This document shows positions 3,050 to 24,972 of a stretch of 64,000 nucleotides of DNA, piece after piece (the first letter of the stretch is position 1; each line of letters opens with the position of its first letter). The stretch is taken from contig NZ_JAAGOB010000002.1 of the NCBI RefSeq assembly GCF_010550695.1, forward strand, positions 434,001 to 498,000, given 5' to 3'. Under the pieces are notes generated by a model, which did not search any database, was not told the origin of the DNA, and saw only the letters and a program-made list of their open reading frames with translations. The stretch is from Phytoactinopolyspora alkaliphila. Its GTDB lineage: Bacteria > Actinomycetota > Actinomycetes > Jiangellales > Jiangellaceae. A program made the translations under genes and the position numbers.

Positions 3050-4936
3050 CTACACGGGCACTTCGACGGTCAGGAGAAAGCTGTCGTCCTGGGAGGAGAC
3101 CGCCACCCGGCCGCCCACCACCTCAGCGCGCGTGGCGAGGTTGACGAGTCCGTTGCCGTGGCCGTCCACACCGCTCTCGCTGTCCGTCCCGACTCCGTCG
3201 TTGCCCACGAGCAGGCGCACCACGCCGTTGGCGGTGTCGAGGGAGATGGTGCAGCGCCCGGCTTGCGAATGCCGCACGACGTTGGTGACCGACTCCCGGA
3301 TCACGATGGCCAGCAGCCTGTCCAGGCGGTCGGCCGGGGGTGGGCCGGTCACCTCCACCGTCACGTCGACGCCTGCCGCCTCCAGGACTCGCTTGGCAAT
3401 GGCCAGCTCACTGGCGGACCTCAGTTCCTCCGCGATGCCGGCGACGGCACGCACCTCGACCAGCGCGAGCTCCGCGCTACGTGCCAGGTCCATGAGATGG
3501 CCGCGGACCGCGGCGGCGTCGCCAACCGTTCTCCAGGCGAGTTCGGCCTTCATGGTGATGACCGTCAGATGAAGGCCGAACACGTCGTGGACATCCCGCG
3601 CGAATCGCAATCGCTCCGCCAGCACCGCCGACCGGGCCAGCTCGTCCCGGGTCCCGTGAAGCCATCCGCTGATCTCCGGAAGCCTGCACAGGGCATACAC
3701 GGCGAGAGCGCACCCCACCGGAGACAGCGCCCAGTACAGCATGAAACCCAGGCCGGAGAGTCCGGCCTGGGCGACGGCCGTAGCGGTCACGAACCCGCAG
3801 AGGATCGCCAGTAGCGGCCACGCCATGGCGGGCCGCAATCTGGTCAGCGCCGCGCCACCTGCCAGCGCCAGAATCGGCACCAGGCCAGGGCCGGACACCA
3901 CCAGGATCGCAGCGGCCAGCATGAGCAGGTGAGCGGGCAAGGTCCAGCGCCACCACCGCGGCGCCGACCCGCCCGCTCGTGGCGTGCCGTGATAGAGCTG
4001 GAACGCACCGGCCGCGAGCACCACCGCGATGCTCACCGCCCACGCGCTCGCGCCCAGGGTGGGTGTCTGCTCCGACCCCAGATTCATGATCGAGATGACG
4101 GAGGAGGTCACTACCATCGCGAACGCCACCCACCAGCAGAACCGGAACGGGGCCTCTTGCGCCGCTTCGGCCGACCGGGCCGGTGCGGACGTATCCGCGG
4201 CGCCGGCGGGACGCGGCGCCCGGTGCATGTTGGTCACCGGCCTGGCGCCGGACACCGTCGTGTTCACCAGTTCACGCAACTCCGCCAGCTCGGCCCGGCT
4301 CGGCTCCGGCGCGACCAAGACAGTTCGCGTTCGCTGCACGACGACCGCCAGCTGATCGCCGAGGGCACGCCGGAGCCGGTCCGCGGCGCGCTCCCGCTCG
4401 GCCTCCACCTCGACAGCGACGAGCCGCTGCCGCACATCATGAGTCGCTTGAACCAGCTGGGCGAGCCGCGCTATCGCGAACAGGACGATCGCCACGTTCA
4501 CGTCGACGAGCAGAACTGTGCCCCACTCGTACCCGGTGGAGGCCGGCAGCACGCCGAATGCCGATCGGACGGTCGCGTCCGTCCCGACGACGATTATCAG
4601 GAGCAGCCACGCAACGCGCGGGCGCAAGGTCAGCAAGAGCACCGCACCCAGCAGGCCGGCGATTCCGCCCCAGCCGTGCCCGATGACGGCGTACGGACCG
4701 AAGGCCAGGAGGGCCTGCACACTCAGCAACACCCGCACGGGGCCGCGCCGCAGCATCACCAGGATGTAGATGCCGAACAGTCCAGCGACGGCCGCGATGC
4801 CCACCGCCGTCAAGCCCGCCGACTGCTCCTCCCGGTACGAGAGGTCGTCGAGAAGAGCACCGATCCGGACCGGAACGAGGACGGCGATGAGGGCGAAGGC
4901 GAGGAACCACGCGAACCACGGTTTCAGCCTCACCAC
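3050..4936 (-). CDS. DesK/NarL-type sensor histidine kinase with an internally duplicated sensor module
   Basis: A 628-residue integral membrane kinase. Residues 9-157 hold about five hydrophobic helices, followed at 176-207 by a coiled segment that aligns with a HisKA_3 H-box but has Arg where the His belongs (DRLRRALGDQL). Residues 267-420 hold a second membrane block. Then comes a true HisKA_3 motif, ARDVHDVFGLHL, with the phospho-acceptor at H450. An HATPase_c domain follows (RESVTNVVRHS N-box around 548-558, GNDGVGTD, GHGNGLVNL). The layout suggests a duplication and fusion of a whole TM-DHp unit with decay of the first histidine. Tandem GTGs lie at 4936 and 4933 behind GAGGGGAG. No response regulator gene is adjacent, so the partner is unknown. 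Confidence 0.88.
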   Translation of the reverse strand: MVRLKPWFAWFLAFALIAVLVPVRIGALLDDLSYREEQSAGLTAVGIAAVAGLFGIYILVMLRRGPVRVLLSVQALLAFGPYAVIGHGWGGIAGLLGAVLLLTLRPRVAWLLLIIVVGTDATVRSAFGVLPASTGYEWGTVLLVDVNVAIVLFAIARLAQLVQATHDVRQRLVAVEVEAERERAADRLRRALGDQLAVVVQRTRTVLVAPEPSRAELAELRELVNTTVSGARPVTNMHRAPRPAGAADTSAPARSAEAAQEAPFRFCWWVAFAMVVTSSVISIMNLGSEQTPTLGASAWAVSIAVVLAAGAFQLYHGTPRAGGSAPRWWRWTLPAHLLMLAAAILVVSGPGLVPILALAGGAALTRLRPAMAWPLLAILCGFVTATAVAQAGLSGLGFMLYWALSPVGCALAVYALCRLPEISGWLHGTRDELARSAVLAERLRFARDVHDVFGLHLTVITMKAELAWRTVGDAAAVRGHLMDLARSAELALVEVRAVAGIAEELRSASELAIAKRVLEAAGVDVTVEVTGPPPADRLDRLLAIVIRESVTNVVRHSQAGRCTISLDTANGVVRLLVGNDGVGTDSESGVDGHGNGLVNLATRAEVVGGRVAVSSQDDSFLLTVEVPV

Positions 4937-13493: not shown

Positions 13494-14651
13494 TCAGCGC
13501 GCAGCAAGCCGCGCGTCAACGGCCGCGGGGGCGAACACGTGGTCGACGACCATCCGGGTCATCCCGACGACGGCGGCGTTCTCACCGAAGGTCGACAACC
13601 TGACGTCGAGGTGGCGGGTGGCACGTGGCAGTGACAGCGGGTACAGGCTCTCCCGTACTCCGCTGATCAACGGCGCCGAAGCGAGAGCACCGCCGATGAC
13701 GAGGATCTCGGGATTCAGAAGGCAGACCACGGTGGCCATGACCTCGCCGATGCGGCGCCCGGCGTCCTGCGTGAGCCCCATCGCCGTCGTGTCGCCCTGA
13801 GCGAGCAACCGAGAGACGTCCCGTCCGGAATGCGCCTCGATGCCGGTTCCGGACAGCGCGCTCGCCACAGCGCGACCGCTCGCCACGGCGGCGAGGCAGC
13901 CCCGGGAACCACATTGGCAGACAGCATCCGGATAGTCGGAGAGGCGCACGTGGCCGATGTCGCCGGCTCCGCCGTCGACGCCGTGGTAGATCCGGCCGTT
14001 CAGCACGATGCCGGTGCCGATCCCGGTGGAGACCTTCACGAAGCACAAGGTGTCGCAGGACGGGTAGTTCGTACTCTGCTCGCCCAGCGCCATCACATTC
14101 GCATCGTTCTCTACCAGGACCGGGCCCGTTCCGAGCGCATCCTCGAGATGGTCGGCCACCGGGTAGGCGTCCCATCCCGGCATGATCGGTGGTTGACTCG
14201 GGCGCGCCGTGTCCGGATCCACCGGACCCGGGATGCTCACTCCGACGCCGCTGACCTGAGACCGCGTCACGCCCGTGTGCTCGAGACTCTGGTCGATCGC
14301 CTGGCTGACCGCGTGCAGAGCCGACTCAGGACCGTCGGCCACCGCGACCTCGATGTCATGCTCCACGAGAACTCGCCCGACGAGATCGGTCACCGCCACC
14401 CGGGCATGGGTGGTCTCGACCGCCGCGACCACCACGACCGAATGGGCCGCGTTGAACTCCAAGTGCGTCGCGCGGCGGCCGCGGGATGCGCTCGCTGTGC
14501 CGGCGTGGCGGATGAGACCGTCGGCGAGCAGTGCGTCGACTCGCTGGGCCACGGTCATGCGCGACAGTCCGGTGGCATCCATGATCTCCCCGCGGGTGCG
14601 GGCCGTGCCCGTCCGGATCAATGCGAGCACATCACCCGGTCCCGACGCCAT
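13494..14651 (-). CDS. ROK-family transcriptional repressor
   Basis: A 385-residue sugar-responsive regulator. The N-terminal winged HTH spans about 1-70 (RGEIMDATGLSRMTVAQRVDAL). The ROK/sugar-kinase fold follows with ENDANVMALGE, STGIGTGIVLNGRIYHG and the zinc-binding CQCGSRGCLAA. The usual GHxxL segment is GHVRL rather than GHM. It is divergent from an ABC importer and sugar-enzyme operon, with a perfect 23-bp palindrome between, so it almost certainly represses that operon and itself until a sugar binds. Confidence 0.94.
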   Translation of the reverse strand: MASGPGDVLALIRTGTARTRGEIMDATGLSRMTVAQRVDALLADGLIRHAGTASASRGRRATHLEFNAAHSVVVVAAVETTHARVAVTDLVGRVLVEHDIEVAVADGPESALHAVSQAIDQSLEHTGVTRSQVSGVGVSIPGPVDPDTARPSQPPIMPGWDAYPVADHLEDALGTGPVLVENDANVMALGEQSTNYPSCDTLCFVKVSTGIGTGIVLNGRIYHGVDGGAGDIGHVRLSDYPDAVCQCGSRGCLAAVASGRAVASALSGTGIEAHSGRDVSRLLAQGDTTAMGLTQDAGRRIGEVMATVVCLLNPEILVIGGALASAPLISGVRESLYPLSLPRATRHLDVRLSTFGENAAVVGMTRMVVDHVFAPAAVDARLAAR

Positions 14652-14731
14652 CGAACTCTCCCTTCACCTGGCGCGTGGGGCCCGCCGATGGGCCGTGTTC
14701 GCCGTCCTTCGGAGCATAACAGTTTGATGAA

Positions 14732-14754
14732 ATATGCATAGACACTATGCATAT
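14732..14754. promoter_or_regulatory. Perfect 23-bp palindrome, ROK operator candidate
   Basis: ATATGCATAG-ACA-CTATGCATAT is perfectly symmetric over both 10-bp arms and strongly AT-rich inside a high-GC spacer. It is 80 bp before the ROK start and 131 bp before the solute-binding protein gene. No second copy was seen in the window. Confidence 0.75.
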
Positions 14755-14885
14755 GTCGCCTAGTGTGCCAGCATAACGACGCCAACGACGGCCGGGACGA
14801 CACGCAGCAAGCGCGGCGGTACTTGGGCGTGCGGCACACGTACGTCCGCGCGGACTCGTCCCTGTGACCTGTAAGGGGATACCTG

Positions 14886-16280
14886 ATGACAACACGCGCA
14901 GTACGCACTGTGGCGACGCTCGCGGCGGTGGTGACAGTGGCCGCCTGCGGGAGCGGAGAAGACAACGATGCCGGCGCCTCCAGTGACGGCCCGATCGTGG
15001 TCTGGACGACCGACACATTGCCGGATCGGGTGGCTGCCACCGAGGCCATCATCGATGACTTCACCGACGCCACCGGCATCGAGGTCGAGCTGGTAGGCGT
15101 GGCGGAAGACCAGTTCAACCAACTCCTCACGTCGGCCGCCGCAGCAGGTGACCTGCCGGACGTGATCGGATCGATCTCACTGGCCGCCGTACGTACCCTG
15201 GCCGCCAACGAGCTGGCTGGCACCGACATCAACGCGGCCGTGATCGAATCGCTGGGTGCGGCGACGTTCAACGAACGTGCCCTGGAGATGACCCGCGACG
15301 GCGACCAGCAGCTCGCCGTGCCCAGCGAATCATGGGCGCAATTGCTCTACTACCGGACGGACCTGTTCGAGGATGCCGGCCTCGACGCCCCGCAGACCTA
15401 TGAGGACGTCCTCGCCGCCGCGCAGGCGCTGGACGAGCAGGGCCTAGCCGGCTTCGTTGGCGCCACCACCCCTGGAGCGGCATTCACGCAGCAGACCTTC
15501 GAGCACATCGCCCTCGGCAACGGATGTCAGATGGTGGACGAGGCGGGCACAGTCCTCTTCGACAGCCCGCAGTGCGTCCAGGCGCTGGAGTTCTACGGTG
15601 ACCTGGTACAGAACCACTCCGTGGCCGGAGGCCAGGACGTGGACACCGTGCGAGCGTCATACTTCGCGGGTCAGGCTGCGATGTTCATCTGGTCGACGTT
15701 CGTCCTCGACGAGATGGCCGGACTGCGCGACGACGCGATGCCGAGTTGCGACGAATGCGAAGACGATCCCGCCTACCTTGCGGCCAACACGGGGATCGTC
15801 CCGGCCATCCAGGGTCCTGACGGCACTGCTCCGGCTCAGTTCGGTGAGATCACCTCGTGGACGGCGACAGTCGACGCCTCGCCGGAGCCGGCGCGGCAGT
15901 TCATCGAGTACGTACTCAGCGATGGCTACCTGGACTGGGTGGGCATCGCCCCCGAGGGCAAGTTCCCCGTGCGGGAGGGCACCGCGGACAATCCCACCGA
16001 GTACGTCGACGCGTGGCAGACCCTTCCGGTGGGGGTCGACACGAAAGCCCCGCTCGACGAGCACTACCCGCCCGAGGTGCTGGAGGCCCTTCGCGACGGG
16101 CTGTCCGATCTCAATCGCTGGGGGATCACCCAAGGACAGGGAGATCTCGTCGGCGCCTCGCTCGGCGAACTCCCCGTCGCCCAAGCCGTCAGTGATGTGA
16201 CCAGCGGGAGCGCGGAGCCGGAGGCTGCCGCCAAGCAGGCGGCCGACGCACTGCGCGAGATCCAGGACTCGCTGCGATGA
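14886..16280 (+). CDS. ABC sugar transporter, extracellular solute-binding lipoprotein
   Basis: A 464-residue lipid-anchored sugar receptor (MalE/family 1 type). A signal peptide ends in the lipobox TVAAC, with the anchor Cys near residue 21, followed by an acidic linker. The mature part has typical features: LAVPSESWAQLLYYRTDLFEDAG and NWxxA-like stretches including FAGQAAMFIWSTFVLDEM. First gene after the ROK operator, with AAGGGGA before the ATG. Its stop overlaps the next start (ATGA). The ligand is unknown; the downstream hydrolases suggest an alpha-linked glycoside. Confidence 0.92.
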   Translation: MTTRAVRTVATLAAVVTVAACGSGEDNDAGASSDGPIVVWTTDTLPDRVAATEAIIDDFTDATGIEVELVGVAEDQFNQLLTSAAAAGDLPDVIGSISLAAVRTLAANELAGTDINAAVIESLGAATFNERALEMTRDGDQQLAVPSESWAQLLYYRTDLFEDAGLDAPQTYEDVLAAAQALDEQGLAGFVGATTPGAAFTQQTFEHIALGNGCQMVDEAGTVLFDSPQCVQALEFYGDLVQNHSVAGGQDVDTVRASYFAGQAAMFIWSTFVLDEMAGLRDDAMPSCDECEDDPAYLAANTGIVPAIQGPDGTAPAQFGEITSWTATVDASPEPARQFIEYVLSDGYLDWVGIAPEGKFPVREGTADNPTEYVDAWQTLPVGVDTKAPLDEHYPPEVLEALRDGLSDLNRWGITQGQGDLVGASLGELPVAQAVSDVTSGSAEPEAAAKQAADALREIQDSLR

Positions 16281-17275
16281 GCCTGCCCGTGACGGGCGCG
16301 GGCCGGAGCACACATGGCACCGGACCGCGCCCCGACCGGGGCACCTCCACGATGGCGCGGGCCGAGGCGCGCGCCGGGTTCGGCTTGATCGCGCCCACGG
16401 TCATCATCGTGCTCCTCGTGGTGGTCGTCCCGATCATCTGGACGATCCTGCTGGCCTTCCAGGATCTGCGGCTGATCAACCTGAGACGGGCCGGCCTGTT
16501 CGGTGACTTCACGCTGGCGAACTTCACCCAGGTGCTCACGTCGTCGGGGTTTCTGGAGGCGTTGTTCACCACTCTGGTCTACTCCGTGCTCGGCACCGGA
16601 AGCGCCATCGTCATCGGACTTATCGCCGCGCTCGCGCTGCGCAAGCCGTTCCGCGGCCGCAACCTGGTGCGCGCGTGCATGCTCCTTCCCTACGTGGCGC
16701 CCGTGGTCGCCGTGACCTTCGTCTGGCGCACGATGCTCAATCCCCAGTTCGGCGTGGTGAACCACTGGGGCACGCGACTGCTCGGCTGGGACGAGCCGAT
16801 CGCGTTCCTCACCCAGCGCACCCTCGACGTATCCATCTTCGGCTGGTCGACGGGTATTCCCATCGCCTTGCTCACCGTGATCGCTTTCGAGGCATGGCGC
16901 TCGTTCCCGTTCGCGTTCATCTTCCTCACGGCACGTCTTCATGCCGTCCCGGCCGGGATCGAGGAGGCCGCCCGCGTCGACGGCGCCACCCCCCTCCAGC
17001 GATTCCGGTACGTGATCCTTCCCCAGCTGATGCCCACGATCGCCGTGCTGACCGTGCTCCGCTTCATCTGGACCTTCAACAGCTTCGACGACATCTACCT
17101 GCTCACAGGCGGAGGAGCGGGAACCGAGGTCGTAGCGGTTCGGGTCTTCGACTTCCTCACCTCCCGGGGCGATATCGGAGCCGCGTCGGCACAGGCGCTC
17201 GTCCTCGCACTGATCCTCGCGCTTCTCGTCGGGGTGTACATGCGCCGGTTCGCGCGGAAGGAGGAGGTCGCGTGA
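16277..17275 (+). CDS. ABC sugar transporter permease, MalF/UgpA type
   Basis: A 332-residue inner-membrane permease with an N-terminal hydrophobic helix (LIAPTVIIVLLVVVVPII), about five further helices and the conserved cytoplasmic EAA loop EEAARVDGATPLQRFRYVIL that docks the ATPase. It pairs with the next permease. No ATP-binding gene is in this operon, so an MsiK-like shared ATPase elsewhere in the genome is likely, as is common in actinomycetes. Confidence 0.93.
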   Translation: MSLPVTGAGRSTHGTGPRPDRGTSTMARAEARAGFGLIAPTVIIVLLVVVVPIIWTILLAFQDLRLINLRRAGLFGDFTLANFTQVLTSSGFLEALFTTLVYSVLGTGSAIVIGLIAALALRKPFRGRNLVRACMLLPYVAPVVAVTFVWRTMLNPQFGVVNHWGTRLLGWDEPIAFLTQRTLDVSIFGWSTGIPIALLTVIAFEAWRSFPFAFIFLTARLHAVPAGIEEAARVDGATPLQRFRYVILPQLMPTIAVLTVLRFIWTFNSFDDIYLLTGGGAGTEVVAVRVFDFLTSRGDIGAASAQALVLALILALLVGVYMRRFARKEEVA

Positions 17276-18198
17276 CCGAAACGACTGTCAGCGAGCGGCG
17301 TGCTCTCCCACAGGTGCACCGGTCACGGAACTGGTCACGGGACCGTGTGGAGAACAAGACCCTGGGAATTCTGCGTGTCGCAGTCATCGCGGTCCTGCTG
17401 ATCGCGACCGTGTTCCCCTTCTACTACATGGCGATGCTCTCCGTTCGTGACCTGTCGGGAGTGCTGCGGGACCCCGGTGCGCTGTGGGTGAGCGTCTCCG
17501 AACTCAGCTTCGACACCTATCTGGCGGTGCTCCGTCCGCAGGGTGACGGGGGTCAGGGCTTCCTGCTGTTCATGCGGAACAGTGCCGTCGTGGCACTCGG
17601 GACGGTCGCGTTGTCCCTGCTTGTCGCGCTGCCGGGCGCATACGCGATCAGCCGCCTGAGGTTCTTCGGTCGCCGCCAGATCAGCGCCCTGTTCCTCGCG
17701 GTCTACTTCTTTCCGAGCATCCTCCTCGCGGTCCCGCTGTTCGTGTTCTTCACCCGCATCGGGTTGCGCGGATCGCTGATCGGGCTGCTGGTCGTCTATG
17801 TCGCCCAGGTGGTAGCGGTCACGATCTTCATGCTCCGCAACTACTTTCAGACGGTCCCCGTGAGCCTCGAAGAGGCTGCCGCGATCGACGGATGCACCCG
17901 TCTGGGCGCGATGCGGCGGATCACCCTGCCGCTCGCCATGCCGGCCATCGTGTCCAATGGGCTGTTCGTCTTCATGATCGCCTGGAACGAGTTCCTGTTC
18001 GCCTTGCTGTTCCTGGTGGAACGGCGAGACAGCTGGACCGTTTCGCTCGGGCTCTCGCAACTCTCAGGCAGCATCGAGATCCCCACCACGGTGCTCATGG
18101 CCGGTTCCGTGGTGCTGACGCTGCCCATCATCGTCATCTTCTTCGCCACCGAACGGCTCCTGACCGACGGCCTGACCGCCGGCGCCGAAAAGGGCTGA
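17272..18198 (+). CDS. ABC sugar transporter permease, MalG type
   Basis: A 308-residue partner permease with six membrane helices and the EAA loop EEAAAIDGCTRLGAMRRITL. The GTG at 17272 overlaps the previous stop (GTGA), follows GGAGGAGG, and is in frame with all the homology; no longer start is credible. It forms the channel with the 16277 permease and serves the same solute-binding protein. Confidence 0.93.
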   Translation: MTETTVSERRALPQVHRSRNWSRDRVENKTLGILRVAVIAVLLIATVFPFYYMAMLSVRDLSGVLRDPGALWVSVSELSFDTYLAVLRPQGDGGQGFLLFMRNSAVVALGTVALSLLVALPGAYAISRLRFFGRRQISALFLAVYFFPSILLAVPLFVFFTRIGLRGSLIGLLVVYVAQVVAVTIFMLRNYFQTVPVSLEEAAAIDGCTRLGAMRRITLPLAMPAIVSNGLFVFMIAWNEFLFALLFLVERRDSWTVSLGLSQLSGSIEIPTTVLMAGSVVLTLPIIVIFFATERLLTDGLTAGAEKG

Positions 18199-18217
18199 CC
18201 CGCCCGGAAAGGCCTCC

Positions 18218-19267
18218 ATGCCACAGATCGTCCAATTCACCGAGCCCGGACGCGCCGAACTCGTCGCGTGCGAAGCGCAACCGCTGACCACCGGTTGTGT
18301 CCGGGTCCGTACCCGCTACTCCGGTATCTCCGCCGGGACGGAGCTGACCGCGTTCCGCGGGACCAACCCGTACCTGACGAAGAGCTGGGACACCGAACGC
18401 CGGATCTTCGTCGACGGGCCGCCTACCTTTCCGTATCCCGTGATGGGGTGGGGTTACTCGGAGGTCGGCGAGGTCGTCGAGGTAGCGGACGATGTCGAAG
18501 ACGTGAGCGTAGGCACCACGATCTACGGTGCGTGGGGGCACCGGAGCGACGCCGTCATCCCAGCGAATCGGGTTGCCGGCCAGGTCCTGCCGGCCGGCAT
18601 CGACGTCCTGGACGGCGTGTTCGCCCGGGTCGGCGCGATCGCCCTCAACGCTGTGCTGGCAGCCGCCCCCTGTCTGGGCGAGACCGTGGCGGTCTTCGGG
18701 CAAGGCGTCATCGGCTTGCTCGCCACCCGGTTGGTGACGCTCAGCGGTGCCGACGCGATAGCGATCGATCCGGTGGACCGTCGTCGTGACCTGGCTGTTC
18801 AATTCGGAGCGCAGGCGACCCTCTCGGCGGACTCGCCCGCTGGGGCGGGCGCAGCTGTCCGCGACCTCACGGGCGGGCCCGGCGCCGACTCGGCGATCGA
18901 GCTGAGTGGCAGTTATCGCGCCCTGCACGAAGCCGTCCGCGCCGTCTCGCCGGACTCCCGCGTGGTGGCGGCGGGGTTCTACCAGGGGGAGGCCGGCGGT
19001 CTGCGGCTGGGAGAGGAGTTCCACCACAACCGGGTGCAGATCGTGGCCAGTCAGATCGGCGCCACGCCCGTGTCTCTCGGCGCGCGCTGGACACCTCAGC
19101 GGCTCGGGACGGTGTTCCTCTCCCGCATTGCCCGCGGAGATCTGGATACCAAGCCCCTGGTCAGTGACGTGCTCCCCGCGGCCGCGGTAGCGGACGCCTT
19201 CGCGTTGCTCGACCGCGGAGCGGAGCAGACCCTGCAGGTGGTACTCGACTTCGGTGATCCGCGATGA
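18218..19267 (+). CDS. Medium-chain dehydrogenase/reductase (zinc-less ADH-like)
   Basis: A 349-residue MDR-fold oxidoreductase. The GroES-like N-terminal part has YSGISAGTELTAFRG, where zinc ADHs have catalytic Cys/His ligands, so the catalytic zinc is probably absent. The NAD(P) domain has VAVFGQGVIGLLATRLV and GADSAIELSG. Members beside Gfo/Idh/MocA enzymes often oxidise sugars or cyclitols, but the substrate here is unknown. The ATG at 18218 is preceded by GGAAAGG. It shares ATGA with the next gene. Confidence 0.85.
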   Translation: MPQIVQFTEPGRAELVACEAQPLTTGCVRVRTRYSGISAGTELTAFRGTNPYLTKSWDTERRIFVDGPPTFPYPVMGWGYSEVGEVVEVADDVEDVSVGTTIYGAWGHRSDAVIPANRVAGQVLPAGIDVLDGVFARVGAIALNAVLAAAPCLGETVAVFGQGVIGLLATRLVTLSGADAIAIDPVDRRRDLAVQFGAQATLSADSPAGAGAAVRDLTGGPGADSAIELSGSYRALHEAVRAVSPDSRVVAAGFYQGEAGGLRLGEEFHHNRVQIVASQIGATPVSLGARWTPQRLGTVFLSRIARGDLDTKPLVSDVLPAAAVADAFALLDRGAEQTLQVVLDFGDPR

Positions 19268-20466
19268 CCGCGCATCCGGAGGCACACGACGACGTGACGT
19301 CCGCTGGGCTCGGTGCCGAGGTCCGGTCCCTCATGCAGGCACATTGGGATGACACACGCGGGTATTGCGTGCCGAATCCGAGTGTCTACCCGCATCTGTG
19401 GCTGTGGGACTCGTGTTTCCACGCGATCGTGTGGGCTCATCTCGAGGACGAGCGAGCCCCGGCCGAGCTCGCCGCCGTGCTCGCCGGACAACTGGACGGC
19501 GGCATGATCCCGCACATGCGCTACGGCCCGGAGGGGCCGGACACCTGGCTGGGGCCGCTGCCCCAAGTGTCGTCCCTGACACAGCCGCCGATCTTCGGAC
19601 ATGCCGCGCGGGTGGTGCACGAACGTGGCATGGAGGTGCCCGACGAGGTGGTGCGCCGGGCCGTGCGGGCGTTCGACTGGCTGTGGGAACACCGCCGCAC
19701 CCCGGACGGCCTGCTGGTGATCGTGCATCCGTGGGAGGCGGGCAACGATCACTCGGTGCGGTGGGACGACTGGGGCGCACCCGGACGTACGCCAGCCGAT
19801 TACAACCGTGCCGCGCGCACGGCCTGGAATAAGGACCAGATGCGCCACGTGCGGTTCGACGACGACGGTGCCGCTGTCTGGTCGGCGTCGTTCGTGGCGG
19901 CGCCCGCGGGCTTCAACGCCCTGACGGCGTTCTCGATGGCGGAGCTCGGTGCCCTGACCGGCGATCCCCGGCTGGTCGAGCGTTCCCGCCTGCTCGCGGA
20001 GGCCATCGACCAGCACCTGTGGAATGCCGAGCTGCGGCTGTGGGCGGACCGGGCCGTCGTCGGTGGTGGCCCTTCCGTCTCTTCCCCGATCAGCGACGGA
20101 GCGCTGGGAGCCCTGGTCACCTCGGACCGCGCCAAGGCCGAGGCGGCCCTGTCGCAGTTGGACGATCCCGGTCGTTTCGGTGCGCCGTCGGGTCCGGCGA
20201 ACGTCGCGCGGGACCACGCGTCGTACGATCCGGCGACATACTGGCGCGGGCCCGCGTGGCCGCAGCTGAATTATCTGTTCGGTGTGGCTCTGGCTCGCTG
20301 GGGCCGGGCAGAGGACGCGGCGCGGCTGACTCGGCGATCCATCGCTGCCGCGCGCACGTCCGGCTGGGCGGAGTACTGGAACCCGGAGACGGGCGAGGGG
20401 CTGGGTGCGGCACCACAGTCCTGGACCGGGATCGTCCTCGCGATGGCGCAGGAGCATCTGCGATGA
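19264..20466 (+). CDS. MGH1-like (GH63-related) alpha-glycoside hydrolase, paralogue 1
   Basis: A 400-residue predicted (alpha/alpha)6-barrel hydrolase, cytoplasmic (no signal peptide). Signature segments: LWLWDSCFHAIVW near residue 45, VHPWEAGNDHSVRWDDW around 160, YWRGPAWPQLNYLFG around 330 and QSWTGIVLAMA at the end. These match the mannosylglycerate/glucosylglycerate-hydrolase-like group. A second family member lies at 22852 in the same operon. The true substrate is unknown. Confidence 0.85.
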   Translation: MTAHPEAHDDVTSAGLGAEVRSLMQAHWDDTRGYCVPNPSVYPHLWLWDSCFHAIVWAHLEDERAPAELAAVLAGQLDGGMIPHMRYGPEGPDTWLGPLPQVSSLTQPPIFGHAARVVHERGMEVPDEVVRRAVRAFDWLWEHRRTPDGLLVIVHPWEAGNDHSVRWDDWGAPGRTPADYNRAARTAWNKDQMRHVRFDDDGAAVWSASFVAAPAGFNALTAFSMAELGALTGDPRLVERSRLLAEAIDQHLWNAELRLWADRAVVGGGPSVSSPISDGALGALVTSDRAKAEAALSQLDDPGRFGAPSGPANVARDHASYDPATYWRGPAWPQLNYLFGVALARWGRAEDAARLTRRSIAAARTSGWAEYWNPETGEGLGAAPQSWTGIVLAMAQEHLR

Positions 20467-21512
20467 GCGCGCCGGACTATCGGCCCTCCTTCCCGGACGA
20501 TCGCCTTGGCGTCGGGATCCTCGGGTGCGGACGCATCGCGCAGAGCGCTCACTTGCCCGCCTACGAGAAGTACGGAGTGGACGTCGTCGGCGTGTGGAGC
20601 CGGTCACCGCAGACCAGGGCCACGCTCGCTGATCGCGTCGGCCATGCACAGGTATACGAGACCGCGGAAGAGCTCCTCGCCGACCCGCGGGTGGCGGTCG
20701 TCGACATCGCGACACCTGCCCAGGACCGCCTGCGGTGGGTCGCCGCCGCCGTGGCGGCGGGCAAACACGTCCTGGCGCAGAAGCCGCTCACCACGGACCC
20801 GGCCGAGCTGGCGCCCGTGCTGGCCGAGGCGGAGCGCCGCGAGCTCAGGCTCGCGGTGAACCAGAACGGGCGCTGGGCACCGGCGTGGCGACTGGCGACC
20901 CTGCTGGTGCGCGACGGTGCCGTCGGGCAGGTGCTCGGCGTCACCCACCTGCACGACAAGCCACTTCCGCCGCTCGCCGGCACCCCGTTCGACGACATAC
21001 CGCACATGCTCATCACGGACTACCTCGTGCACTGGATCGACATCACCCGGTGCTGGTTGAGCGGCACGAGCGTGCGGACGGTCACCGCGAGCGACACCCG
21101 GACACCCGGGCAACCCGGGCACGCACGCAATCCCTGGGCGGCGTCGGTATCCGTCGAGTGCGAGGACGGCGCCCGGGCACACATCCAGGTGCCCGGCAAC
21201 GTCCACACACGCAGCGGGTCCTGCCCATTCTGGATTCACGGGACGGACGGCACGATCCGCGGCAGCGTACTGCTCGGATCGGATTCCGTCGAGCTCGAGC
21301 ACGGCGAGCGCACCACCCGGTTCGCACTGGACGGGCAGTGGTTCGTCGACGGTTTCGCCGGTGCGATGGGCGAACTGATGCATGCCGTGGCCGAAGGACG
21401 GGAACCAGAGAACTCTGCACGGGACAACCTCGCCACCCTCGGCCTGGTCGAGGCGGCACGTCGCTCAGCGCAACGCTCCGGTTCCGCAATCGACGTCCGC
21501 ATAGCACTGTGA
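20463..21512 (+). CDS. Gfo/Idh/MocA-family oxidoreductase
   Basis: A 349-residue NAD(P)-dependent sugar or inositol dehydrogenase. The Rossmann motif GVGILGCGRIAQSAHLPAY lies at about 15-33. The usual EKP motif is QKP (VLAQKPL). The C-terminal half includes HMLITDYLVHWIDITRCW. The ATG at 20463 overlaps the previous stop (ATGA). Together with the MDR enzyme it suggests an oxidised (keto-sugar) intermediate in this pathway. Confidence 0.92.
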   Translation: MSAPDYRPSFPDDRLGVGILGCGRIAQSAHLPAYEKYGVDVVGVWSRSPQTRATLADRVGHAQVYETAEELLADPRVAVVDIATPAQDRLRWVAAAVAAGKHVLAQKPLTTDPAELAPVLAEAERRELRLAVNQNGRWAPAWRLATLLVRDGAVGQVLGVTHLHDKPLPPLAGTPFDDIPHMLITDYLVHWIDITRCWLSGTSVRTVTASDTRTPGQPGHARNPWAASVSVECEDGARAHIQVPGNVHTRSGSCPFWIHGTDGTIRGSVLLGSDSVELEHGERTTRFALDGQWFVDGFAGAMGELMHAVAEGREPENSARDNLATLGLVEAARRSAQRSGSAIDVRIAL

Positions 21513-21523
21513 GGAGCACCCCC

Positions 21524-22855
21524 ATGGAGTTCACTCTGATCGACGAGGTCGAGGTGGACGTGGATACAGCCCGCATATACGTCGAGGGCTGGCAGAGCTG
21601 GAGCCCCACCGGCTGGTTTCCGGCAGCGGGCACCGGTCCGCGACCCGACCAGCGCTGGCAGCACCTGATGCGGTTCCGCCCAGGCACCGACCTTCCCGCG
21701 GACGGGTACCAGGGCGAGGGTCTGATAGCGGTGGACCCGGGCGGCGAACTCCCCGTGCAGGTGTACGGTGCGCCGGACCCCCGCGCCACGCCGCCCTCCA
21801 TCCGTGCGCGGCTCTCCGGTTCCACCGTGCTCGTCAGCGCGGACGGCCCGGCGAGCGTCGTCACCGTGCCCGCAGGCGGCGATGCCGCACTCGCGGCTTT
21901 CGGCGACCTGTGGTCCGCTGCGCTGGGCGGTGTGCCCCTCCGCCCTGCGCCGAGCGTCTGGTGCTCCTGGTACCACTACTTCGAGGACGTCACCGAGGCC
22001 GACATCGTGGAGAATATGGCCGGCATCCGGGAGCATTCGCTGCCGGTGGACGTGATCCAGATCGACGATGGATGGCAACGCGGGATCGGTGACTGGCACG
22101 GTCACTCCGAGCGGTTCGCCTCGCTGACCGGACTACGGCGGCGCATCGGTGACGCAGGCATGCGCGCCGGCATCTGGGTGGCGCCGTTTCTCGTGGGCAG
22201 CGGGAGCGAGCTGGCCCGTACGCATCCGGACTGGCTGGTGGGCGAAGCCGGGACGAACTGGCACCAGGACCTCTACGGCCTCGACATGACTCACCCGGCC
22301 GCCCGGGAGCATCTGTGGACCGCGTTCCGCGAGCTACGCGAGATGGGCTTCGACTACGTCAAGCTCGATTTCCTCTACGCGGGTGCGGTGCCCGGGTCGC
22401 GCCACGACGGTTCCGGCCCGCTCGACGCATACCGCAGCGGCCTGCGATTGATACGCGACGCGGTCGGCCCGGAGACGTACATGCTGGGCTGCGGCGCGCC
22501 GATCCTGCCCAGCGTGGGTCTGGTGGACGGTATGCGGGTGTCCCCCGACACCTTTCATGCCGGGCAGCAGGACGGCTCAGCGGGACTACGCGGTGCACCG
22601 GCCGCGGCCGCCAGGGCCTGGCAGCACGGGCGACTCTGGACCAACGATGCCGACTGCCTCGTCGCCCGGCCGAGTTTCGGGCTGCGCGCAACCTGGGCCG
22701 AGGTCGTCGAGGCGTACAGCGGTTTGCGTTCATGGTCCGACCGGGTGGAAGACCTCGACCGCTGGGGCCTCGACACGACCAGGAGACTACTCGCCCACCC
22801 GCCCGGGACCCGCCCATTGATCGATTCACCGCTGAGCAAGGAGACGCCCGCATGA
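21524..22855 (+). CDS. GH36-like alpha-galactosidase
   Basis: A 443-residue cytoplasmic retaining glycosidase of the GH36/GH27 clan. The barrel shows WCSWYHYFEDVTEADI, VDVIQIDDGWQ and GIWVAPFLV. YVKLDFLY holds the expected nucleophile Asp, and MRVSPDT the expected acid/base Asp. It is much shorter than full GH36 enzymes (about 700), with a reduced N-terminal beta domain (about 140 residues). The ATG at 21524 follows GAGGAG. It releases alpha-linked galactose or a similar sugar; specificity is inferred. Confidence 0.85.
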   Translation: MEFTLIDEVEVDVDTARIYVEGWQSWSPTGWFPAAGTGPRPDQRWQHLMRFRPGTDLPADGYQGEGLIAVDPGGELPVQVYGAPDPRATPPSIRARLSGSTVLVSADGPASVVTVPAGGDAALAAFGDLWSAALGGVPLRPAPSVWCSWYHYFEDVTEADIVENMAGIREHSLPVDVIQIDDGWQRGIGDWHGHSERFASLTGLRRRIGDAGMRAGIWVAPFLVGSGSELARTHPDWLVGEAGTNWHQDLYGLDMTHPAAREHLWTAFRELREMGFDYVKLDFLYAGAVPGSRHDGSGPLDAYRSGLRLIRDAVGPETYMLGCGAPILPSVGLVDGMRVSPDTFHAGQQDGSAGLRGAPAAAARAWQHGRLWTNDADCLVARPSFGLRATWAEVVEAYSGLRSWSDRVEDLDRWGLDTTRRLLAHPPGTRPLIDSPLSKETPA

Positions 22856-24135
22856 CATGGTCCAGCCTGGCCGACGAGGCGGGTCGCATCCTGGAAGGGA
22901 ACTGGTCCGGCGGCTACACGACCCCGGCCAGCGGCCTGTACCCGCACCAGTGGAGCTGGGACTCGGCGTTCATCGCAATCGGGCTGAGGTGGCTTTCCGC
23001 CTCCAGAGCGCGCACCGAGCTCGACTCCCTGTTCGCGTCGCAGTGGGCCGATGGTCGCGTGCCGCAGATCGTCTACGACCCCGCTCGGGAGGACGACTAC
23101 CAGCCCGGAGCGGCATTCTGGGACTCGGCGGCCATCTCCGGCGCACCGGAGCGACCCACCACCGGCCTGGTGCAACCGCCGAACCACGCCGTCGCGGCCT
23201 GGCTCGTGCACACGGCCGACATCGAAGGCTCACGGCAGGCCCGGTTCCTCGAGCGCCTGTACCCGAAGCTCGTCGCGTGGCACCAGTACCTCACCATGAC
23301 GCGCGTATCACCGGGACGGACACTGGCCGCCATCGTCCACCCCTGGGAGTCAGGCACGGACAACTCCCCACTCTGGGATGACGCGCTGGCGACACTTCCG
23401 AAGGTCGCCCGTGACATCCCCAGACCAGACCTCGAGCACGCCGGTGCCGACGAGCGACCCAGCCAGAAGGAGTACGGAACGTACTACTGGCTCGCCGAGG
23501 CCTACCGCGACCAGGGCTGCGACCACCGCGAGGGGCAATGGCGCTTCCTGTTCGAAGACCCGTCGTTCAATGCGCTGTGGTCCGCCTCGGAGCATGCGCT
23601 CGCGCGAATCGCCACGGAGATCGGCCGGGATCCCGTCCCACACCACGAGCGTGCTCGTGCCGTGACCTCCGCGCTCGACTCGTTGTACGACGAGAGTCTG
23701 GGGGTGTTCGTCGCCTGGGACGCCGTCCGTCACGCACCGGTCCGCAAGGCGACCGTCTCCGGCCTGATACCTCTTCTCCTCCCCGGCCTCACCCAGGCGG
23801 ACCAACTGATCCGGACCCTGCGCGGGCCGACGTTCCTCGGCGACCACGCGCTGCTCGTGCCCAGCTATGACGCCACGGCGCCAGATCACGACCCGACGCA
23901 ATACTGGCGGGGACCGTCGTGGTTCAACATGACGTGGATGGTGATCCAGGGCCTGCGCACACATGATCAGGACGCCTTGGCGGACAGCTTGACCCAGCAT
24001 TTCTGTGCGCTGGCGCTTGAGCATGATTTCCCCGAGTATGTGGACCCTTGGACCGGAGCCCCTCACGGCGCGCGGCGATTCAGCTGGACGGCTGCGCTCG
24101 CCCTCGACCTGGCCCGGACGTCGCCGGCAGGCTGA
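22852..24135 (+). CDS. MGH1-like (GH63-related) alpha-glycoside hydrolase, paralogue 2
   Basis: A 427-residue (alpha/alpha)6-barrel enzyme related to the 19264 product: HQWSWDSAFIAIGLRW, VHPWESGTDNSPLWDD, YWRGPSWFNMTWM and FSWTAALALDL. The closest characterised relatives hydrolyse mannosylglycerate or glucosylglycerate. The start overlaps the GH36 stop (ATGA). It is the last gene of the operon, and its TGA stop abuts the stop of the convergent ArsR-GNAT gene with no spacer. Confidence 0.88.
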   Translation: MTWSSLADEAGRILEGNWSGGYTTPASGLYPHQWSWDSAFIAIGLRWLSASRARTELDSLFASQWADGRVPQIVYDPAREDDYQPGAAFWDSAAISGAPERPTTGLVQPPNHAVAAWLVHTADIEGSRQARFLERLYPKLVAWHQYLTMTRVSPGRTLAAIVHPWESGTDNSPLWDDALATLPKVARDIPRPDLEHAGADERPSQKEYGTYYWLAEAYRDQGCDHREGQWRFLFEDPSFNALWSASEHALARIATEIGRDPVPHHERARAVTSALDSLYDESLGVFVAWDAVRHAPVRKATVSGLIPLLLPGLTQADQLIRTLRGPTFLGDHALLVPSYDATAPDHDPTQYWRGPSWFNMTWMVIQGLRTHDQDALADSLTQHFCALALEHDFPEYVDPWTGAPHGARRFSWTAALALDLARTSPAG

Positions 24136-24141
24136 TCAGCC
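24130..24141. other. 12-bp palindrome formed by two abutting convergent stop codons
   Basis: GGCTGATCAGCC is perfectly symmetric. Its centre TGATCA is the stop of the 22852 hydrolase followed directly by the stop of the minus-strand ArsR-GNAT gene. With no intergenic base, the two transcripts must overlap unless this short hairpin ends them. Confidence 0.6.
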
Positions 24142-24972
24142 GTCTTGACGTCGCCGTTCGAGGAAGACGGTGTCTCGCCAGACGCCGTGGTGCTGCGCGA
24201 TGCGCTCGCGCACCCCGAGGGTACGGAATCCGGCGGAGTGGTGCAGCGCCAGGCTGGCCCGGTTCTCCGGGAAGATCGAGGTCTGCAAGGTCCACAACCC
24301 CGCGTTGTCGGCGGCGATAACCTGGTGTCGAACCAGGGCCTTGCCGACGCCGCGCCCTCGGAACCGCTCGCCCACATAGACCGATGTCTCCCCAACGCCC
24401 GCGTAGCAGGCTCGGCCCGAGACCGGACTCGCGGCCGCCCAGCCCGCGATCTCCCCGTCCACCTCGGCCACCCAGCGGTGATCGTCCATCCACGCGGCAT
24501 CGAGAGTGGCCTGCGGAGGCACCTCGGTCTCAAAGGTGGCAACGCCAGTGGCGATCCCCTCGGCGAAGATCCGGGACACAGCAGGCCAGTCTCCGGCCCT
24601 CATGGCCCGTACGTCCACGTCGTCCGTCGGTAGCTCGGGGCAGCACGGTCGGGTGGCCAAAACTCCCATGACCACGTCCGCAGCGTGCGGGAGGCCGGTG
24701 CAGCATGCGGGATTGACGGCGACGACGGTGGTGGTGCCTTCCTTGCGCAGCTGTACGAAACCGACGTCCGCCAGCTTGCGCACGTGATGCGAGCAGGTGG
24801 ACTGGCTGATGCCCAGCTGCTCGGTGAGCTCACCCACGGTGATGGTCCCGGCAGTGGCGACGGCGTGCAGAAGCCGCACCCGGGTGGGCTCGGCCAGGCA
24901 GGCGAACCATTCGGCATAGGTGGAGGCATCGTCGAGCGGGAGCACCGGCCGGACAGGAGCCGTCATCGTCAT
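24136..24972 (-). CDS. ArsR-type repressor fused to a GNAT (ArsN/phosphinothricin-acetyltransferase-like) domain
   Basis: A 278-residue fusion. Residues 15-115 form an ArsR winged HTH (LAEPTRVRLLHAVA, GISQSTCSHHVRKLADVGFV) with Cys60 in the recognition region and Cys pairs at 90-91 and 110-111 that could bind As(III). Residues 119-278 form an acetyltransferase (RFRGRGVGKAL acetyl-CoA loop, ENRASLALHHSAGF) of the PAT/ArsN group, which N-acetylates phosphinothricin or arsinothricin-like amino acids. It is divergent from an ArsO-like gene across a spacer rich in ATCGA motifs. One protein may therefore both sense arsenical and detoxify it; substrate and metal are inferred. Confidence 0.88.
   Translation of the reverse strand: MTMTAPVRPVLPLDDASTYAEWFACLAEPTRVRLLHAVATAGTITVGELTEQLGISQSTCSHHVRKLADVGFVQLRKEGTTTVVAVNPACCTGLPHAADVVMGVLATRPCCPELPTDDVDVRAMRAGDWPAVSRIFAEGIATGVATFETEVPPQATLDAAWMDDHRWVAEVDGEIAGWAAASPVSGRACYAGVGETSVYVGERFRGRGVGKALVRHQVIAADNAGLWTLQTSIFPENRASLALHHSAGFRTLGVRERIAQHHGVWRDTVFLERRRQDG

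What the first reader, a model, noticed from the sequence alone, without database searches (positions are those of the whole stretch)
13494..24135. ROK-controlled operon with two MGH1-like hydrolases, a GH36-like enzyme and two dehydrogenases
Eight tightly coupled genes follow one perfect operator. Two paralogous GH63-related hydrolases, a shortened GH36 enzyme and two different oxidoreductase types (MDR and Gfo/Idh/MocA) point to an unusual alpha-linked glycoside degraded inside the cell, possibly through a keto-sugar step. No kinase or isomerase is present, and I recognise no characterised pathway with this set.
Basis: partly seen in the sequence, partly recalled or inferred. Interest (0 to 1): 0.7.

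Follow-up and report, generated by a model that had tools for sequence, protein, structure and literature searches.

The report
Predicted guloside-to-galactoside sugar-degradation operon
A soil-type actinobacterium carries a switchable set of genes that appears to import a rare gulose-containing sugar, flip one carbon to turn the gulose into ordinary galactose, and then cut everything into common nutrients, by a route not described in any paper found here (the library holds only part of the literature).

Summary
In detail: a ROK repressor, a perfect 23-bp palindrome unique in the genome, and eight coupled genes (importer, MDR, MGH1-like a, Gfo/Idh, GH36, MGH1-like b). The statement that no characterised pathway resembles this set is wrong. 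Importer and MDR match the E. coli ycj cluster (YcjN/O/P/Q), annotated as the D-guloside-to-D-glucoside pathway. MGHb keeps the glycerate-binding residues of glucosylglycerate hydrolase, and in sister operons it is replaced by a YcjM-type glucosylglycerate phosphorylase (21 loci versus 52, never both), so the core aglycone is probably glucosylglycerate. The window operon lacks the C4 epimerase YcjR and the outer phosphorylase YcjT, and has a GH36 with a complete α-galactosidase active site and an unrelated Gfo instead. Gulose and galactose differ only at C3, so C3 oxidation and re-reduction would give a galactoside that GH36 can cleave, with no epimerase. Across 83 loci epimerase and GH36 exclude each other; the one exception is a truncated epimerase beside a distant GH36. 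On the MDR tree the main switch happened once, so the counts are not independent. No activity was measured. MGHa, an associated esterase and the natural substrate remain unexplained. Verdict: new variant of a known pathway.

The parts
13494..14651 (-). ROK-family repressor (P0006), divergently transcribed
   Evidence: PF00480 E 7e-50 + HTH_24; orthologue next to the operon in 73 of 80 loci
14732..14754 (.). ROK operator, perfect palindrome ATATGCATAG-ACA-CTATGCATAT
   Evidence: related sites in L088, L100, L072, L106
14886..16280 (+). solute-binding lipoprotein, YcjN type (P0004)
   Evidence: PF01547; 28% to YcjN, E 2e-35
16277..17275 (+). ABC permease A, YcjO type (P0005)
   Evidence: 34% to YcjO, E 4e-42
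17272..18198 (+). ABC permease B, YcjP type, GTG start (P0009)
   Evidence: 37% to YcjP, E 1e-52; no ATPase gene in the operon
18218..19267 (+). MDR dehydrogenase without catalytic or structural zinc ligands, YcjQ type; predicted guloside 3-dehydrogenase (P0001)
   Evidence: 29% to YcjQ over 348 aa, 120 bits, against 55 bits for the next E. coli MDR tested, RspB
19264..20466 (+). MGHa: divergent MGH1-like hydrolase that lacks the glycerate-binding Tyr88/Tyr222 loops but keeps acid, base and sugar-binding residues (P0002); role unknown
   Evidence: PF22422 E 4e-68; residue mapping
20463..21512 (+). Gfo/Idh/MocA oxidoreductase, predicted 3-keto-glycoside reductase giving the galacto product (P0003)
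   Evidence: PF01408; K107, D186, H190 invariant; not an orthologue of YcjS; found only in GH36-type operons in 396 genomes
21524..22855 (+). GH36 alpha-galactosidase, 443 aa (P0007)
   Evidence: all ten TmGalA active-site positions kept; PDB match 1zy9 E 3e-63
22852..24135 (+). MGHb: glucosylglycerate-hydrolase-like MGH1 enzyme (P0008)
   Evidence: NF047898 E 2e-91, 307 bits, below its cut-off of 550; MhGgH Y36, W40, Y88, R216, Y222, Y375, D182 and E419 all kept

Best explanation
The operon is a galactoside-exit variant of the ycj (D-guloside) pathway. Proposed steps: (1) the YcjNOP-type ABC importer brings in an alpha-D-gulosyl-containing derivative of glucosylglycerate, and the ROK repressor leaves its operator (importer homology shown; cargo inferred). 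(2) The zinc-less YcjQ-type MDR oxidises C3 of the guloside with NAD(P)+ (homology shown; activity inferred from E. coli YcjQ). (3) Because 3-keto-guloside and 3-keto-galactoside are the same compound, the unrelated Gfo/Idh/MocA enzyme reduces C3 from the other face and gives an alpha-D-galactoside; no C4 epimerase (YcjR) is needed and none is present (inferred from the gene exchange). (4) GH36 releases D-galactose (active site shown; activity inferred); steps 3 and 4 could occur in either order. (5) MGHb hydrolyses the remaining glucosylglycerate to glucose and glycerate (residues shown; activity inferred). Galactose and glycerate can enter metabolism through the genome's galactokinase and glycerate kinase families. 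MGHa probably removes a further alpha-glucosyl unit from an aglycone other than glycerate.
For: Homology of SBP, PermA, PermB and MDR to YcjN/O/P/Q, and of sister-operon genes to YcjR (34-38%) and YcjM (39-43%). MDR fits YcjQ far better than six other E. coli MDR proteins, and both lack the zinc ligands. All 21 sister GH13_18 enzymes carry TETN and the loop-A Glu, which PMC7178133 gives as hallmarks of glucosylglycerate phosphorylase. MGHb keeps every direct glycerate-contacting side chain reported for MhGgH (PMC6608630). Phosphorylase and MGHb never occur together: 21 versus 52 loci. Epimerase and GH36 exclude each other: 46 versus 29, one with both; in that one (L059) the epimerase is cut to its first 103 residues, without its metal-binding C-terminal part, beside a distant GH36. 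No YcjR-like gene in the window's genome and only remote homologues in three other GH36-type genomes, against clear ones in L094 and L108. GH36 has the full TmGalA active site. Listeria, Pseudalkalibacillus and Enterobacter records hold the epimerase + GH65 form; the Listeria one adds a glycerate kinase. Glycerate kinase and galactokinase families are in the window's genome.
Against: No activity was measured. On the MDR tree the epimerase-to-GH36 switch is essentially one event plus L059, so the Fisher P values overstate the evidence. MDR-YcjQ identity is only 29%, so the clade could act on another sugar or carbon. The Cellulomonas aerilata locus L065 has MDR, GH36 and MGHb but no dedicated Gfo in its genome, and L059 has no Gfo nearby. 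Seven Jiangella loci have MDR with none of the partner enzymes. MGHa and the SGNH esterase found with it are not explained. MGHb departs from MhGgH at H78 and F89 (Gln, Gln). No natural gulosyl-glucosylglycerate was found in the papers searched.
Confidence: 0.58

Rival explanations
1. ycj-type operon, but GH36 removes a separate galactosyl decoration, while MDR and Gfo process another residue (for example C3-epimerising an alloside or guloside that MGHa then cleaves).
For: MGHa is present only together with GH36 (8 of 8 loci) and has an alpha-glucoside -1 subsite, so both a galactosyl and a second glucosyl unit could occur in the substrate.
Against: 20 loci of type B have MDR, Gfo and GH36 without MGHa. 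The link of GH36 gain with epimerase loss, seen again as a truncated epimerase in L059, would be coincidental.
Confidence: 0.2
2. The dehydrogenases oxidise the released sugar or glycerate (for example an aldose or inositol-like oxidation), and the operon is an ordinary alpha-galactoside/glucosylglycerate utilisation operon.
For: Gfo best matches IolG-type models and MDR weakly matches IolM in NCBIfam; all are far below the cut-offs.
Against: MDR matches YcjQ over its full length and much better than other MDR proteins; the canonical clusters keep MDR beside the guloside epimerase.
Confidence: 0.12
3. The Gfo protein is an NAD-dependent glycosidase or part of a 3-keto beta-elimination route, cleaving the glycoside without a conventional hydrolase step.
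For: The Gfo fold also hosts NAD-dependent glycosidases (own knowledge); 8zn9, from a sulfoquinovosidase study, is among the Foldseek hits. Beta-elimination from 3-keto glycosides is known (PMC10628242, listed).
Against: Three conventional hydrolases with complete active sites are present; the best fold matches are 1,5-anhydrofructose reductases and sugar dehydrogenases; no beta-eliminase was recognised in the operon.
Confidence: 0.07

Closest known systems
E. coli K-12 ycjMNOPQRSTUV-ompG cluster (D-guloside to D-glucoside, kojibiose phosphorylase, glucosylglycerate phosphorylase)
   Same: Homologous SBP, two permeases and YcjQ-type MDR in the same order, a Gfo-family enzyme, and an enzyme for glucosylglycerate.
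   Different: No YcjR epimerase, no YcjT (GH65), no YcjM or YcjU; GH36, MGHb and MGHa instead; a non-orthologous Gfo; ROK instead of LacI regulation; no ATPase gene or porin.
Streptomyces-type sister operons (ROK-ABC // MDR-TIM-MGHb, plus GfoC and a GDE_N_bis hydrolase)
   Same: MDR about 56-58% identical, orthologous importer, ROK and MGHb.
   Different: Retain the YcjR-type epimerase and a third Gfo subfamily; no GH36.
Mycolicibacterium hassiacum glucosylglycerate hydrolase MhGgH and Thermus MgH (MGH1-like)
   Same: MGHb keeps the catalytic Asp182/Glu419 and the glycerate-contacting Tyr36, Trp40, Tyr88, Arg216, Tyr375.
   Different: H78 and F89 are Gln in the window's MGHb, and Q434 is Phe as in TtMgH; MGHa lacks the glycerate-binding loops altogether.
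Thermotoga maritima GalA / GH36 alpha-galactosidases
   Same: All ten active-site positions.
   Different: 443 aa: shorter N-terminal domain, no C-terminal beta domain; sits in a ycj-type operon.

Membership tests
ycj-type guloside pathway | YcjN/O/P-type importer | tested here: met
   E 2e-35, 4e-42, 1e-52
ycj-type guloside pathway | YcjQ-type zinc-less MDR (D-guloside 3-dehydrogenase) | tested here: met
   120 bits full length against 55 for the next E. coli MDR tested; zinc ligands absent in both; activity not testable
ycj-type guloside pathway | YcjR 3-dehydro-guloside 4-epimerase | tested here: not met
   absent from the operon and the genome; the same query finds it in L108 and L094
ycj-type guloside pathway | YcjS glucoside 3-dehydrogenase | tested here: not met
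   a Gfo protein is present but only 27% over 149 aa to YcjS, not an orthologue
ycj-type guloside pathway | YcjT GH65 outer phosphorylase | tested here: not met
   no GH65 match in any of the 83 loci; GH36 instead
ycj-type guloside pathway | enzyme for glucosylglycerate (YcjM) | tested here: inconclusive
   YcjM absent in the window; MGHb in its place keeps the glycerate site; YcjM homologues with TETN/YE occur in 21 sister operons
ycj-type guloside pathway | conversion of gulosides shown biochemically | not testable with these tools
   needs purified enzymes
GH36 alpha-galactosidase | catalytic D327/D387 and galactose-binding D220/D221/W257/K325/C368/R383 (TmGalA) | tested here: met
   the list of positions is from memory and matched by alignment
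glucosylglycerate hydrolase (GgH) | catalytic pair and glycerate-binding residues of MhGgH | tested here: met
   for MGHb; not met for MGHa
glucosylglycerate hydrolase (GgH) | NCBIfam NF047898 equivalog cut-off (550 bits) | tested here: not met
   MGHb 307 bits, MGHa 136 bits
ROK repressor | ROK domain plus N-terminal HTH, palindromic operator at the divergent promoter | tested here: met
   binding not testable

The most novel reading that the evidence does not exclude
Actinobacteria use an undescribed C3-only double-redox route (guloside to galactoside, no C4 epimerase) to consume a still unknown but common natural glycoside, a gulosyl-glucosylglycerate. The route arose at least twice by exchanging YcjR and the outer glucoside enzyme for a GH36 alpha-galactosidase.
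Probability: 0.4. Interest if true: 0.75.

Novelty: new variant of a known kind. Interest (0 to 1): 0.6.

Why it matters
The natural substrate of the ycj pathway is unknown: in PMC11543891 a thermal-shift screen found no ligand for YcjN. Gene exchange across actinobacterial operons points to one predicted molecule class, a gulosyl derivative of glucosylglycerate, and explains why the epimerase is dispensable when an alpha-galactosidase is present. Both claims can be tested with a few purified enzymes. If true, gulosides are a carbon source used in at least three bacterial phyla, and the gene set would give a stereochemical editing kit for sugars.

Tried and rejected
GH36 as the search handle: its relatives in the window's order lie in unrelated alpha-galactosidase-type operons. 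MGHa as handle: rare in 396 genomes, but it led to the first syntenic loci. An inositol pathway (IolG/IolM/IolO-like hits): rejected after the much better full-length matches to YcjQ and YcjR. A 3-keto beta-elimination pathway: no eliminase gene recognised, complete hydrolase active sites. Raffinose/sucrose use: the GH13_18 partner has glucosylglycerate-phosphorylase hallmarks, not those of sucrose phosphorylase. Hydroxypyruvate isomerase function for the TIM barrel: weaker match than YcjR. Fold search of Gfo: only generic sugar dehydrogenases. Sigma-70 promoter and terminator scan: nothing above chance. Perfect palindromes in relatives: none like the window's; only imperfect versions of the same motif. 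Papers on ycjQRS, YcjR, the kojibiose phosphorylase and GGaP are not in the library, so E. coli activities rest on RefSeq annotation, citing papers and my own knowledge.
Full report
OBSERVATION. The window region holds a divergent ROK gene (13494-14651, -), a perfect palindrome (14732-14754) and eight genes on the + strand from 14886 to 24135 that overlap by 4 nt or are separated by 11-19 nt. The palindrome is absent from 100 shuffles and, with up to 3 mismatches to its 19-bp core, occurs once in the 5.5 Mb genome apart from one 3-mismatch site. Imperfect versions (L088 TTATGCCTAGCGTCTTTGCATAT, 17 of 20 positions) lie in front of the same operon elsewhere.

DISTRIBUTION. A search with the short GH36 in the window's order finds it otherwise in alpha-galactosidase-type operons. 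A search with MGHa in 396 genomes of the phylum gave ten hits beyond the window; two of them (L053, L061) carry MGHb, two permeases, MGHa, GH36, MDR and Gfo together. An alignment of four MDR proteins found 222 relatives in a collection of 84,980 species genomes; the best 80 were fetched. Around these MDR genes the orthologous importer (75-76 of 80) and ROK (73) are nearly constant, while the enzymes vary. With three more loci added (83), the main patterns are: type A, MDR-Gfo-GH36-MGHb-MGHa (7 loci, and the window); type B, MDR-Gfo-GH36-GH13_18 (20 loci); type C, MDR-TIM barrel-MGHb, mostly with another Gfo (GfoC) and a GDE_N_bis-type hydrolase, in Streptomyces and relatives; seven Jiangella loci with MDR and none of the partner enzymes.

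WHAT IT RESEMBLES. The E. coli K-12 ycj cluster is annotated in RefSeq as glucosylglycerate phosphorylase (ycjM), ABC importer (ycjNOP), D-guloside 3-dehydrogenase (ycjQ), 3-dehydro-D-guloside 4-epimerase (ycjR), D-glucoside 3-dehydrogenase (ycjS), kojibiose phosphorylase (ycjT) and beta-phosphoglucomutase (ycjU). The window's SBP, permeases and MDR match YcjN, YcjO, YcjP and YcjQ (E 2e-35, 4e-42, 1e-52, 9e-35); the type C TIM barrel matches YcjR (34-38%, E to 1e-55); the type B GH13_18 matches YcjM (39-43%, E to 1e-154). MDR scores 120 bits over its full length against YcjQ and 55 bits against the next of six other E. coli MDR proteins, and MDR and YcjQ both lack the catalytic and structural zinc ligands. 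The Gfo proteins of types A/B, of type C and of E. coli are three different subfamilies: the reductase slot was filled independently. Records of Listeria, Pseudalkalibacillus and Enterobacter hold the canonical set with epimerase and GH65; the Listeria one adds a glycerate kinase. So this family of pathways occurs in at least three phyla.

THE AGLYCONE. PMC7178133 gives (T/S)ETN at strand beta-5 and a Glu in loop A as marks of glucosylglycerate phosphorylase. All 21 type-B-like enzymes have both, as does YcjM. MhGgH contacts glycerate through Tyr36, Trp40, Tyr88, Arg216 and Tyr375, with Tyr222 through water (PMC6608630). MGHb of the window keeps all of these and both catalytic residues, as do nearly all MGHb of the sister operons. 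The two unrelated enzymes never occur together (21 versus 52 loci). Two independent lines therefore point to glucosylglycerate as the core. MGHa keeps the catalytic and sugar-binding residues but has lost the Tyr88 and Tyr222 loops, so its aglycone is something else.

THE EXCHANGE. TIM barrel (YcjR) and GH36 exclude each other in 82 of 83 loci (46 TIM only, 29 GH36 only, 7 neither). The exception, L059, has only the first 103 residues of the TIM barrel, followed by a stop, without the later region that holds the invariant E146, D179 and H203 block, directly beside a GH36 that is only 35% identical to the window's. No YcjR-like gene is found in the window's genome; three other GH36-type genomes have only remote homologues, while the same query finds clear orthologues in L094 and L108. 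The A/B Gfo is found in 3 of 396 genomes when searched without regard to MDR, always in a GH36 operon. On the MDR tree the GH36 type is one clade (98% of bootstraps) nested in epimerase-type lineages, and L059 lies outside it. The statistics therefore rest on about two events, not on 83 independent ones.

MECHANISM. From established chemistry: gulose is the C3 epimer of galactose and differs from glucose at C3 and C4. In E. coli, C3 oxidation, C4 epimerisation and C3 reduction give a glucoside, and the cluster's GH65 acts on an alpha-glucoside. Without the epimerase, C3 oxidation and C3 reduction from the other face give a galactoside. GH36 of the window, and 33 of 36 compared sequences in all, keep all ten active-site positions of TmGalA. 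The exchange of epimerase plus outer glucoside enzyme for Gfo plus alpha-galactosidase is what this predicts. The order of reduction and hydrolysis is open. Shown: gene content, homology, residue conservation, exclusion pattern. Inferred: every substrate and reaction. Glycerate kinase and galactokinase families occur in the genome.

LIMITS. L065 (Cellulomonas aerilata) has MDR, GH36 and MGHb but no dedicated Gfo; L059 has none nearby; Jiangella loci have MDR without partners. An SGNH esterase accompanies 5 of 8 MGHa loci but is not in the window. AlphaFold of Gfo (pLDDT 90.7) and its Foldseek search give only generic sugar dehydrogenases. The papers on YcjQRS, YcjR and GGaP are not held. No paper found here describes a GH36 variant; the YcjN paper mentions neither galactosidase nor GH36. 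The library is incomplete, so absence is weak evidence.

VERDICT. The operon works like the ycj guloside pathway but fails three of its defining features (YcjR, YcjS, YcjT), so it is filed as a new variant, not as a member.

Noticed in passing
L059 8050-8361 and 8514-9572: Truncated YcjR-type epimerase (first 103 residues, then a stop) directly before a distant GH36 gene, in an MDR lineage outside the main GH36 clade: an apparent second replacement. From a draft genome (87% complete), so an assembly or sequencing error is possible.
   Followed up: yes
L063 4574-5164, L064 4585-5184, L102 4534-5136, L066 12282-12938, L071 14979-15554: An SGNH/GDSL esterase accompanies MGHa in 5 of 8 loci and no other locus, suggesting an acylated form of the substrate. 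No copy in the window.
   Followed up: partly
L055, L057, L058: MGHa homologues outside this operon lie beside a divergently transcribed gene that looks like a glycosyltransferase, a possible biosynthetic or recycling context.
   Followed up: no
L145 8028-10014; L146 7959-9916: Alphaproteobacterial plasmids carry LacI-ABC importer-MGH1-like hydrolase-PIG-L deacetylase clusters, perhaps for an acetylated amino-sugar glycoside.
   Followed up: no
L068, L070, L074, L075, L080, L082, L090: Jiangella species have MDR (most with importer and ROK) but no TIM, Gfo, GH36 or MGH nearby.
   Followed up: partly
L071 11074-12000: A ROK-type sugar kinase gene lies inside a type A operon of a Propionibacteriales draft genome.
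   Followed up: no
window 24136-24972: Fusion of an ArsR-type HTH with a GNAT acetyltransferase, convergent with the end of the operon (judged by eye from the translation).
   Followed up: no
window 3747-3771: Perfect 11-bp inverted repeat CCCAGGCCGGA-GAG-TCCGGCCTGGG, perhaps a terminator.
   Followed up: no
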